A stretch of DNA of 64,000 nt from Nocardioides sp. InS609-2. Its GTDB lineage: Bacteria > Actinomycetota > Actinomycetes > Propionibacteriales > Nocardioidaceae. Numbering within the stretch: the first letter of the stretch is position 1; each line of letters opens with the position of its first letter. Of this stretch, positions 2,582-5,571 are shown piece after piece. The stretch is taken from contig NZ_CP060034.1 of assembly GCF_023208195.1 (NCBI RefSeq), forward strand, positions 2,046,001 to 2,110,000, in the 5' to 3' direction. The position numbers and the translations under genes are program-made. The notes beneath the pieces are model-generated. The model did not search any database. It saw nothing but the letters and a program-made list of their open reading frames with translations, and was not told where the DNA came from.

Positions 2582-3583
2582 GTGGAACTCGCGATCATCA
2601 TCGCGGTTGTCGTCGTTGCCCTCGTCTTCGACTACACCAACGGCTTCCATGACGCGGCCAACGCGATCGCCACCTCGGTGTCGACGCGGGCGCTGACCCC
2701 TCGCGTGGCCCTGGCCATGGCTGCCGTCATGAACTTCGTCGGCGCCTTCCTCGGCCAGAAGATCGCCGGGACCGTCGCCGACACGATCGCGCCACCATCG
2801 GGCAGCCACGGGCTGACCATCGTGATGGCCGGTCTGCTGGGCGCGATCGCCTGGAACCTCATCACCTGGTACTTCGGCCTGCCGTCGTCGTCCTCGCACG
2901 CCCTGATCGGCGGGCTGGTGGGCGCCGCGCTCGCATCGGGCACCCTGGTCCACTGGACCACCGTGATCGACAAGGTCGTCATCCCGATGGTGCTCTCACC
3001 GCTCGTCGCGTTCACCCTCGGCTTCGCGCTGATGCTGGCGATCATGTGGATCTTCCGGCGAGTCAGCCCCAGCAAGGCCAACCGCGGCTTCCGCATCGCT
3101 CAGACCGTCTCTGCCGCCGCCATGGCGCTGGGCCACGGCCTCCAGGACGCCCAGAAGACGATGGGCGTCATCTTCCTGGCGCTGCTCACCGGCGGGTACG
3201 TCGGCGCTTCCGACGATCTCCCGATCTGGGTGATCATCGCGGCCGCCACGGCCATCTCGCTCGGCACCTGGTCGGGCGGCTGGCGCATCATGCGCACCCT
3301 GGGTCGCCGGATCATCCACCTCGACCCGCCTCGCGGGTTCGCAGCCGAGTCGATCGCGGCATCGGTGCTGTACACGACGGCGTACGTCTTCGAGGCCCCG
3401 ATCTCGACCACCCACACCATCACCTCCGCCGTGATGGGCGTCGGTGCCACCAAGCGCGTCTCCGCCGTCCGCTGGGGTGTCGCCCGCTCGATCCTCACCG
3501 CCTGGGTGCTGACCTTCCCGATGGCCGGCGCGATGGCCGCCATCTGCTACTTCGTGGCGCACTTCCTCTTCCAGCTCCCCTGA
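2582..3583 (+). CDS. pit: PiT-family inorganic phosphate transporter
   Basis: This is a low-affinity, cation-coupled phosphate permease in the cytoplasmic membrane. The 333-residue protein shows the duplicated PiT signature, NGFHDAANAIATS near residue 20 and GHGLQDAQKTMG near residue 185, and about ten hydrophobic segments. Length fits short actinobacterial Pit proteins. It starts at GTG 2582, 3 bp after the DUF47 gene, whose end supplies the ribosome binding site (AAGGAG). A hairpin repeat begins 11 bp after its stop codon and may end the transcript. With the Pst system on the other strand, the cell has both low- and high-affinity phosphate uptake in one locus. Confidence 0.94.
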   Translation: MELAIIIAVVVVALVFDYTNGFHDAANAIATSVSTRALTPRVALAMAAVMNFVGAFLGQKIAGTVADTIAPPSGSHGLTIVMAGLLGAIAWNLITWYFGLPSSSSHALIGGLVGAALASGTLVHWTTVIDKVVIPMVLSPLVAFTLGFALMLAIMWIFRRVSPSKANRGFRIAQTVSAAAMALGHGLQDAQKTMGVIFLALLTGGYVGASDDLPIWVIIAAATAISLGTWSGGWRIMRTLGRRIIHLDPPRGFAAESIAASVLYTTAYVFEAPISTTHTITSAVMGVGATKRVSAVRWGVARSILTAWVLTFPMAGAMAAICYFVAHFLFQLP

Positions 3584-3594
3584 CCGTTCCGCCG

Positions 3595-3658
3595 GGATAG
3601 TCCAGTCGGAACTTGTCGTTCGGGCGGCCCAACAGCGACAAGAAGTGACTGGACTACC
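3595..3658. repeat. 64-nt hairpin repeat, copy A
   Basis: This imperfect palindrome has TAGTCCAGTC (3598-3607) pairing with GACTGGACTA (3647-3656), and a nested stem CTTGTCG (3612-3618) with CGACAAG (3636-3642 region). The outer 15 nt on the left (GGATAGTCCAGTCGG) and 14 nt on the right (GTGACTGGACTACC) are identical in copy B at 4720-4783, and both copies are exactly 64 nt long. It sits just after the pit stop codon, so it could act as a terminator, but the conserved sequence suggests a repeat element. Confidence 0.85.
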
Positions 3659-3711
3659 GGGCCTGTGGATGACGGCCGACACCGTGGACGGATCTGGTTC
3701 AGGCTCCTCGG

Positions 3712-4725
3712 ATGGACCACACCGGCCTGACGCGCCCCGTGCACGTCGACCCGACGGGCGTAGCGGGTCCGACTCCGGGGCAGGCGCGTGGACCTCGATA
3801 TCGGTCCACGAGCCGGGGACTCTTCGTGCCCGCATCCGTCTCCGACGACACCCCGAAGCAGCGGATCCTCGAGGCTGCGACGGCTGTGCCCCACGGCGCC
3901 GTCACCGAATGGGCAGCATTGAGATGGCTCGGCGGTACGTGGTTCGGAGGCCTCGGTCGGGCGGGTGAGCGCCGGCCCGTTGCCATCTCCTGTCGACACA
4001 AGCACCTGGCCCAGCCCGGACTGCGCATCAGCCAGGAGGGCTGGTGCCCCGAGTCCGACGTACTCCAGGTCGACGGAGTCCGCGTGACGACGGCTGCACG
4101 CTCGGTCTACTACGAGATGCGTTTCGCGTCGTCGCTCGTCGAAGCGGTGATCGCGCTCGACATGGCCTGCTTCTCAGACCTGGTCAGCATCGACGAGCTG
4201 GACGAGTTCGTCCGCAACCACGGCCCTCGCACCGGTGTCGGACGGGCCCGTCTCGCGGTGGCCCTGGCCGATGAGAACAGCTGGTCCCCACAGGAGACCG
4301 CCACCCGTCTGTACTGGCTGCGGGCCGATCTGCCACCGCTCGCCTGCAACCGCCCCTTGTTCGATCTCGAAGGCCAGTTGCTCGGCACACCTGACCTGAT
4401 GGAGCCCGTGGCGGGAGTTGTCGTGGAGTACGACGGCGCCGTACACCTGCGGACCAGCCAGCGGCGACACGACCGCAACCGGGAGGAAGCGTTTCGCCAC
4501 GTGGGACTGGAGTACGTCGTCGTCATGGCCGGCGACCTGGCCGCCGAGTCGACGACCCGCCGCTTCCGGGCCGCGCATGCGCGCGCGAGCGCCTCGTCCG
4601 GCAGACCTCGAGGGTGGACCCTCGAGCCGCCACCGTGGTGGATCCCCACCGAATCCGTGGCCGCTCGGCGGGCACTCGACAAGTCCGCCCGTGAGCGGCT
4701 CCTGCGCTATCGTCACGCCGGATAG
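3712..4725 (+). CDS. putative PD-(D/E)xK/DUF559-like nuclease-fold protein with AbiEi-like N-terminus
   Basis: This 337-residue protein is not assigned a function. The N-terminal part (after RGLFVPA near residue 37) resembles the winged-helix and linker region of actinobacterial AbiEi-antitoxin-like proteins. The C-terminal part has the outline of a DUF559/Vsr-like endonuclease fold: GTPDLMEP near residue 227, then VVVEYDGAVH near 240, then a conserved basic helix (RRHDRNREE) and VVVMAGDL. The usual ExK is ExD here, as in Vsr-like enzymes, so activity is uncertain. ATG 3712 is taken as start; GTG 3736 is possible. Its stop codon TAG lies inside hairpin repeat B and repeat A lies before it. 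It interrupts an otherwise uniform phosphate locus, suggesting insertion. Confidence 0.65.
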   Translation: MDHTGLTRPVHVDPTGVAGPTPGQARGPRYRSTSRGLFVPASVSDDTPKQRILEAATAVPHGAVTEWAALRWLGGTWFGGLGRAGERRPVAISCRHKHLAQPGLRISQEGWCPESDVLQVDGVRVTTAARSVYYEMRFASSLVEAVIALDMACFSDLVSIDELDEFVRNHGPRTGVGRARLAVALADENSWSPQETATRLYWLRADLPPLACNRPLFDLEGQLLGTPDLMEPVAGVVVEYDGAVHLRTSQRRHDRNREEAFRHVGLEYVVVMAGDLAAESTTRRFRAAHARASASSGRPRGWTLEPPPWWIPTESVAARRALDKSARERLLRYRHAG

Positions 4726-4783
4726 TCCAGTCGGCTTCGGTCGTCAAACCCCCGTCTGGACGACAAATTGTGACTGGACTACC
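4720..4783. repeat. 64-nt hairpin repeat, copy B
   Basis: This is the second copy of the element at 3595-3658, in the same orientation and of identical length. TAGTCCAGTC (4723-4732) pairs with GACTGGACTA (4772-4781), and GTCG/CGAC inside it is conserved at the same offsets as in copy A, while the loop differs. The left arm supplies the TAG stop codon of the nuclease-like gene, and the right arm ends 9 bp before the end of pstB on the other strand. The conserved arms with a diverged loop suggest selection on structure. Confidence 0.85.
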
Positions 4784-4791
4784 CCGGAACG

Positions 4792-5571
4792 TCAGCCGAA
4801 CCGACCCGAGATGTACGCCTCGGTCGACGAGTTGTCGGGGTTGGCGAACATCTTCTGGGTGGAGTTGAACTCCACGAGGTGGCCGGGCTCGCCGGCGGCC
4901 TTGAGGTTGAAGAAGCCGGTGTCGTCGGACACCCGGGCGGCCTGCTGCATGTTGTGGGTCACGATGACGATCGTGTAGTCCTCCTTGAGCTCGTGGATCA
5001 GGTCCTCGATCGCCGACGTCGAGATCGGGTCGAGGGCCGAGCACGGCTCGTCCATCAGCAGCACCTGCGGCTCCACGGCGATGGCGCGGGCGATGCACAG
5101 CCGCTGCTGCTGACCGCCCGAGAGGCCCATGCCGGGCTTGCCGAGCCGGTCCTTCACCTCGGTCCACAGGTTCGCCCGGCGCAGCGATTTCTCGACCACG
5201 GCGTCCTGGTCCGACTTCGGCATCCGCTTCGAGTTGAGCTTGTTGCCGGCCAGCACGTTGTCGTAGATCGACATCGTCGGGAACGGGTTGGGTCGCTGGA
5301 AGACCATCCCGATCTGCCGGCGTACGGCGACCGGGTCGATCTGGGAGTCGTAGAGCGACTGCCCCTCCACCATCACCTTCCCCTCGACGCGCGCGCCCGG
5401 GATCACCTCGTGCATCCGGTTCAGTGAGCGCAGGAAGGTCGACTTCCCGCAGCCGGAGGGTCCGATGAAGGCGGTCACGGACTTCGCCTTGATGGTCATG
5501 TTGACCCCCTCCACCGCGAGGAAGTCCCCGTAGTAGATGTTCAGGTCACTGATGTCGATGCTCTTGGCCAT
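4792..5571 (-). CDS. pstB: phosphate ABC transporter ATP-binding protein
   Basis: PstB hydrolyses ATP to drive high-affinity phosphate import through PstC and PstA. The 259-residue protein has the Walker A motif GPSGCGKST near residue 38, the ABC signature LSGGQQQR near 150 and the Walker B motif [13 protein letters not shown] near 170, all intact, and full family length. It is the last gene of the minus-strand pstS-pstC-pstA-pstB operon, 24 bp after pstA. The start ATG at 5571 is preceded by a purine-rich stretch (AAGAGGAAG). Its end faces hairpin repeat B. Confidence 0.97.

What the first reader, a model, noticed from the sequence alone, without database searches (positions are those of the whole stretch)
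3595..4783. Nuclease-like gene boxed by two identical-length hairpin repeats inside a phosphate locus
Two 64-nt elements in the same orientation share 15 nt at the left end and 14 nt at the right end exactly, with loop sequences that differ. They enclose one gene whose product looks like an AbiEi-linker plus DUF559/Vsr-like endonuclease fold. The left arm of copy B even supplies the gene's stop codon. The gene sits between pit and pstB, where I would expect none. Together this looks like an inserted unit whose ends are structured repeats, perhaps a nuclease that recognises or moves with these hairpins.
Basis: partly seen in the sequence, partly recalled or inferred. Interest (0 to 1): 0.7.

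Follow-up and report, generated by a model that had tools for sequence, protein, structure and literature searches.

The report
Nuclease gene boxed by own palindromes
In some actinobacteria a family of DNA-cutting proteins sits between two copies of its own private 59-letter palindrome, and further copies of that same palindrome are scattered over the chromosome, which looks like an undescribed kind of self-spreading (or tamed) genetic element.

Summary
The two elements share a 59-bp core: two inverted half-sites of about 23 bp around a variable spacer of about 13 bp. The boxed gene encodes an AbiEi-like region fused to a Vsr/EDxHD-type nuclease domain with invariant E-D-H-D residues. Relatives are boxed too, each by its own palindrome: 32 of 42 rows in the protein's clade, 47 of 84 loci overall, 16 of 28 named loci reaching other actinobacterial groups; shifted controls gave 0 of 240 and 0 of 99. 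Palindrome type follows the protein tree, not the chromosomal site. The own genome holds 38 TAGTCC...GGACTA elements: 14 match this gene's box, 24 its paralogue's. The arms of an element are no more complementary than randomly paired half-sites of its family, so duplex half-sites, not hairpins, seem conserved. Most likely two protomers bind the half-sites and place two nuclease domains over the spacer (inferred; related systems have 59-60-bp sites), and break repair spreads or homogenises copies (inferred). It resembles REP-RAYT systems in architecture but shares no part with them. Ten searches of the held library found no prior description.

The parts
3595..3658 (.). Palindromic element A; 59-bp core 3598-3656
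   Evidence: family profile
3598..3620 (+). Left half-site of element A, about 23 bp
   Evidence: information content high to position 22-23 of each half, 0.0-0.4 bit at 24-28 in four families
3621..3633 (.). Variable spacer of A, about 13 bp (presumed nuclease position)
   Evidence: role inferred
3634..3656 (-). Right half-site of element A, about 23 bp
3712..4725 (+). Boxed gene: 337-aa AbiEi-like plus EDxHD/Vsr-type nuclease protein (start codon by ORF only)
3721..4272 (+). AbiEi-like region, residues 4-187
4285..4593 (+). Vsr/EDxHD-type nuclease domain, residues 192-294
4294..4473 (+). Stretch with invariant residues E195, D228, H245, D254
   Evidence: 74 of 74 rows of the wide alignment, the window protein being in it twice
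4720..4783 (.). Palindromic element B; 59-bp core 4723-4781; its TAG (4723-4725) is the gene's stop codon
4746..4758 (.). Variable spacer of B, about 13 bp
   Evidence: role inferred
2582..3583 (+). pit phosphate transporter (context)
4792..5571 (-). pstB ABC transporter ATPase (context)

Best explanation
A selfish or partly tamed nuclease-plus-site element. SHOWN: the gene encodes a protein with an AbiEi-like region and an EDxHD/Vsr-type nuclease domain; it is boxed by two copies of a 59-bp site made of two inverted half-sites of about 23 bp around a variable spacer of about 13 bp; further copies of the same site are dispersed in the genome; homologues have their own site sequences, and site and protein diverge together. 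INFERRED: two protomers bind the two half-sites as duplex DNA through the AbiEi-like region, which sets the 58-59 bp length and puts the two nuclease domains over the spacer, where no sequence is required. INFERRED: cleavage there, repaired from other copies, homogenises and spreads the sites (so copies change specificity together) and lets the boxed unit invert, be lost to a lone site, or relocate. Binding to the upstream copy may also repress the gene, as AbiEi antitoxins do.
For: Boxing: 47 of 84 loci share a >=9-nt arm word in both flanks, 52 of 84 at >=8 nt; 0 of 240 shifted controls, 108 of 6806 cross-locus pairs; 16 of 28 named loci tested, control 0 of 99. Of 742 called genes scanned, 5 are boxed and 4 of these are this family. 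Upstream-to-downstream site similarity 0.90 within a locus against 0.49 between loci; protein identity against site similarity Spearman 0.345, 0 of 2000 permutations as high (44 loci). Own genome: 38 of 38 TAGTCC elements belong to the types boxing its two paralogues; G012: 36 of 38. Copy number follows presence of a TAGTCC-boxed gene: 18 genomes with 4-38 copies; of 19 without, 17 have 0-5; p 1.2e-6. Length: 38 of 38 exactly 59 nt in G012 with 52-68 allowed; own genome 10 of 14 are 59 and 4 are 58 in this family, 24 of 24 are 58 in the paralogue's. Half-sites vary independently. Fold and residues. Literature passages: EDxHD enzyme I-Bth0305I dimerises on nearly 60 bp (PMC3943268); Rv2827c has 23-bp inverted repeats 13 bp apart within a pair, which adds up to 59 bp (PMC7319586).
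Confidence: 0.6

Rival explanations
1. Domesticated regulator: the protein is a site-specific DNA-binding factor (autorepressor, insulator or nucleoid factor) and the dispersed sites serve the host; the nuclease acts rarely or on invaders only.
For: AbiEi proteins autorepress through inverted repeats (PMC7319586 passages). The upstream copy starts within about 200-270 nt of the start codon in nearly all boxed loci. Sites are enriched between convergent genes (19 of 61, p 0.003) and depleted between divergent ones (9 of 61, p 0.008). Arms are clearly conserved.
Against: Sites avoid divergent promoters rather than seek them; 10 of 16 resolvable G012 sites are absent in the related genome G022; putative catalytic residues invariant in 74 of 74 rows; a second copy downstream of the gene is not needed for autoregulation.
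Confidence: 0.22
2. REP-RAYT-like mobile hairpins: the protein recognises the extruded or single-stranded hairpin and transposes it.
For: Same architecture: gene flanked by its own dispersed palindromes, repeat-specific genes (PMC3733652, section 16 read). Strong predicted folding.
Against: Arms of one element are 78.5% complementary at positions 7-23, random half-site pairs of the same family 79.3% (410 of 500 shuffles as high, 59 elements); protein has a Vsr-type domain.
Confidence: 0.07
3. Self/non-self nuclease: a defence enzyme whose dispersed chromosomal sites titrate or license it.
For: PADLOC AbiEi models match weakly.
Against: No AbiEii partner between pit and pstB; boxing by its own site is unexplained. 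A defence neighbourhood was not searched for in the relatives.
Confidence: 0.06
4. Ordinary bidirectional terminators that happen to resemble each other.
For: Copies lie mostly shortly after stop codons.
Against: No T tract at the two window copies; no compensatory covariation; family sequence tied to the resident protein.
Confidence: 0.03

Closest known systems
REP elements with RAYT transposases (REPtrons/REPINs)
   Same: Palindromic repeats, intergenic and mostly after gene ends, dispersed; dedicated gene flanked by its repeats; species with several repeat families have repeat-specific genes (PMC3733652 abstract and section 16)
   Different: Protein is AbiEi-like plus Vsr/EDxHD-type, not an HUH tyrosine transposase; 59-bp site of duplex half-sites rather than a 20-40 bp palindrome; at most 38 exact copies in the genomes counted; actinobacteria (the word occurs 0 times in that paper)
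EDxHD homing endonucleases (I-Bth0305I)
   Different: No intron seen (no intron family among the Rfam matches of the window); gene does not split its target but lies between two whole targets; many whole targets remain in the genome
AbiEi antitoxins (S. agalactiae AbiEi, M. tuberculosis Rv2827c)
   Same: N-terminal region fold and weak profile match; inverted 23-bp repeats; Rv2827c pair spacing gives 59 bp
   Different: No AbiEii toxin gene beside it here; nuclease domain added; sites dispersed over the genome
Vsr and DUF559/MTES_1575 endonucleases
   Same: Nuclease fold, and Pfam matches through relatives
   Different: Fused to an AbiEi-like region and tied to a repeat family

Membership tests
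REP-RAYT (REPtron) | HUH tyrosine transposase | tested here: not met
   Positive assignment elsewhere: the 337-residue model is covered by an AbiEi-like region (4-187) and a Vsr-like domain (192-294) with invariant E, D, H, D; no Pfam transposase match at E<=1
REP-RAYT (REPtron) | gene flanked by its own dispersed palindromes, family-specific | tested here: met
REP-RAYT (REPtron) | conserved as a hairpin with unpaired GTAG or CGTC tag | tested here: not met
   no compensatory covariation between arms in 59 elements; TAG lies inside the paired arm and several families lack it
EDxHD homing endonuclease | Vsr-like fold with E-D-x-H-D active site | tested here: met
   motif name from the abstract of PMC6083498 in a listing; no residue-by-residue superposition was made
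EDxHD homing endonuclease | dimeric cleavage of a target near 60 bp | not testable with these tools
   only the matching 58-59 bp site length was seen
EDxHD homing endonuclease | gene interrupts its target, making carriers immune (recalled definition) | tested here: not met
   two whole sites flank the gene and 12 further exact-arm copies of this family remain
AbiE type IV toxin-antitoxin | AbiEi wHTH and C-terminal domains | tested here: inconclusive
AbiE type IV toxin-antitoxin | adjacent AbiEii nucleotidyltransferase gene | tested here: not met
   only this gene lies between pit and pstB; relatives not checked for it
Intrinsic terminator | GC hairpin followed by T tract | tested here: not met
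   0 found in window 3400-5000
MITE or insertion sequence | target-site duplication | tested here: inconclusive
   by eye no clean duplication at sites absent in G022, but the intergenic DNA around them has also diverged

The most novel reading that the evidence does not exclude
A new class of mobile or coevolving element in actinobacteria: a dimeric AbiEi-EDxHD nuclease that cuts the spacer of its own 59-bp site, with break repair amplifying and homogenising the site genome-wide, so that protein and dozens of sites switch specificity together. It would be an independent invention of the REP-RAYT way of life from homing-endonuclease parts, and a natural library of matched nuclease-site pairs.
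Probability: 0.4. Interest if true: 0.9.

Novelty: categorically new. Interest (0 to 1): 0.82.

Why it matters
If true, short palindromic repeats with a dedicated enzyme have arisen twice from unrelated proteins, and this second case works on duplex sites. It gives dozens of natural pairs of nuclease and half-site from which a recognition code could be read, explains otherwise unexplained repeats in actinobacterial genomes, and makes testable how a genome lives with many intact targets of its own nuclease.

Tried and rejected
Terminator reading: no T tract, no covariation. RNA family: the 4 gathering-level Rfam matches in the window are tRNAs and do not touch the locus; at E<=0.1 two matches below their gathering scores overlap the upstream element of L066 and were taken as chance. 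Exact-arm pattern in genome contigs: 0 (records near the own genome may be left out), as expected if arm sequence is private to each lineage. Plasmid or phage origin: 2 plasmid records at 29-31% identity, no phage record. Sequence search of the PDB with the family profile: nothing at E<=1. Literature: searches in the held PMC library gave, by their listings, no description of such a pairing; subscription journals and preprints are mostly not held, so this is weak evidence of novelty. Split homologue in G017: no TAGTCC elements in the 6 kb around it. Dropped before counts: L060 (short locus); the 47 loci with >=9-nt arms less L117 and L132 (protein under 300 aa) and L136 (under 300 aa and an 84-nt match); two unresolved places of 18.

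Full report
OBSERVATION. The two 64-nt elements, their identical ends, the enclosed gene and its place between pit and pstB are as described. Element B supplies the TAG stop codon. The pattern with exact 10-nt arms occurs 14 times in the 4.52-Mb own genome and never in reversed control form; a covariance model built on these 14 finds 16 distinct places scoring above 45 bits and a few weaker ones.

BOXING IS A FAMILY TRAIT. Homologues of the protein occur in 50 of 58 genomes searched, the own included. In the 18 search loci L058, L059 and L061-L076 with both flanks (48-53% identity) hairpins were seen on both sides and the two sides share arm words, L070 only weakly. A uniform test (the same >=9-nt arm word in hairpins of both flanks) gave 46 of 83 loci, against 0 of 240 shifted windows and 108 of 6806 cross-locus combinations; the 40 combinations printed all join TAGTCC-type loci. 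With gene ends redefined it was 47 of 84, and 52 of 84 with 8-nt words. In the 42-row clade holding the window protein 32 rows are boxed (counted by hand from the tree, L096 at 8 nt). Of 30 named GenBank loci 28 were tested and 16 boxed, including MAG loci of Propionibacteriaceae, Nanopelagicales and Actinomycetales at 31-35% protein identity; control 0 of 99. At least one named locus (L248) is the same place as L085, so the two sets overlap. A blind scan of 742 called genes in the window and 0.8 Mb of genome G022 found 5 boxed genes, 4 of them this family; the fifth lies between copies of an unrelated repeat, and the scan missed G022's pit-site gene, which one search finds boxed. Many rows without boxes are partial or distant hits whose ends I could not place well, but 10 of the 42 close rows also fail.

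GENES HAVE THEIR OWN PALINDROMES. Upstream and downstream sites of one locus are 0.90 similar, sites of different loci 0.49; site similarity rises with protein identity (Spearman 0.345 over 44 loci, 0 of 2000 permutations as high). Four genomes (G012, G019, G022, G030) each hold a pit-site gene with ATCTGAGG/ATCTAGGG-type sites and a second gene with TAGTCCAGTG-type sites; the protein tree groups these eight by site type, not by genome.

DISPERSED COPIES BELONG TO RESIDENT GENES. The own genome has 38 TAGTCC..GGACTA elements (reversed control 3): 14 of the type boxing this gene and 24 of the type boxing its 42%-identical paralogue at 2195026-2195973. Genome G012 has 38 (control 0), all 59 nt; 36 belong to the types boxing two of its genes and 2 (TAGTCCGTATC) have no gene known to me. 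In 37 same-genus genomes, the own included, the 18 with a TAGTCC-boxed gene have 4-38 elements; of the other 19, 17 have 0-5, while G009 and G017 have 19 each (counts). G009 has a weakly boxed gene with TAGTCCCCAAC arms; G017 is unexplained.

FORM OF THE SITE. In four families (10, 9, 17 and 19 copies) information is high to position 22-23 of each half and 0.0-0.4 bit at 24-28; a fifth, smaller and mixed set from G022 is noisier. I read this as 23 + 13 + 23 = 59 bp (58 in the GGGGC family); the inner border is good to about one base. Arms of one element match each other no better than randomly paired half-sites of the family (0.785 against 0.793, 410 of 500 shuffles as high, 59 elements). A hairpin kept for its pairing should show compensatory changes; two separate duplex binding sites should not. 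Known systems fit the length: Rv2827c, an AbiEi protein, has 23-bp inverted repeats 13 bp apart within a pair (PMC7319586, passages), and the EDxHD enzyme I-Bth0305I dimerises on nearly 60 bp (PMC3943268, passages).

SIGNS OF CHANGE AT SITES. Of 15 pit/pstB-linked loci in the set, the 14 others all read from pstB towards pit and the own gene alone is flipped; in two of the 14 (L059, L070) only a pstB-like gene of 56-58% identity is seen. Among the 29 loci examined, 7 have a short pit-pstB gap: G032 keeps one lone element of its own family while its gene lies about 6 kb away; the other six have no such element, and five of them have unrelated hairpins. Of 38 G012 elements 18 had both flanks in the fetched part (0.8 of about 4.5 Mb) of the related genome G022; 2 were unresolved; of 16 read by eye, 5 have a same-family element (one a relic), 1 another family's element, 10 none. 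At three shared sites (2093393, 2449868, 2870284) the inner arm letters differ as the two genomes' own families do. These fit turnover and concerted change but do not prove transposition; loss, conversion and gain cannot be told apart here.

PLACEMENT. By my own gene elements (23 of 38 own, 38 of 38 G012) lie outside genes: 33 tandem, 19 convergent, 9 divergent; convergent gaps are over- and divergent ones under-represented relative to gap length (p 0.003 and 0.008). REPs too lie mostly after coding regions (PMC3733652 abstract).

VERDICT. A real, widespread coupling of an AbiEi-EDxHD nuclease gene with its own dispersed 59-bp site. Duplex recognition by two protomers is the best-supported reading; cutting and spreading are inferred. 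REP-RAYT is what it works like in outline; it is not a member.

Noticed in passing
G022:C4 about 1166464-1166856; also at the G022 sites opposite G012:2510206 and 2540853: A second, unrelated palindromic repeat (GTCACGAGACC...GGTCTCGTGAC) recurs in G022 and once boxes an unrelated ORF.
   Followed up: no
pit-pstB gap of G001, G011, G015 (L158, L163, L157): A near-identical 73-nt hairpin GCCGAGTCGGCGCATC... fills the gap where the boxed gene is absent.
   Followed up: no
G012:C1:1698872 and 2399528: Two elements of a third type, TAGTCCGTATC, without a boxed gene found.
   Followed up: no
L062, L064, L069, L072 flanks; G012:C1:2093393: Extra single half-sites lie about 30 bp beside whole elements, as if half-sites were separate units.
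   Followed up: no
G012:C1:1531556-3049337: 31 of 38 elements lie in this third of the chromosome.
   Followed up: no
G017 genome: 19 TAGTCC elements but no strictly boxed TAGTCC gene found; a split homologue at C1:473985-474773 has none nearby.
   Followed up: partly
G012:C1:2354933: The orthologous G022 site holds a degenerate element of a different family, as if the place were reused.
   Followed up: no
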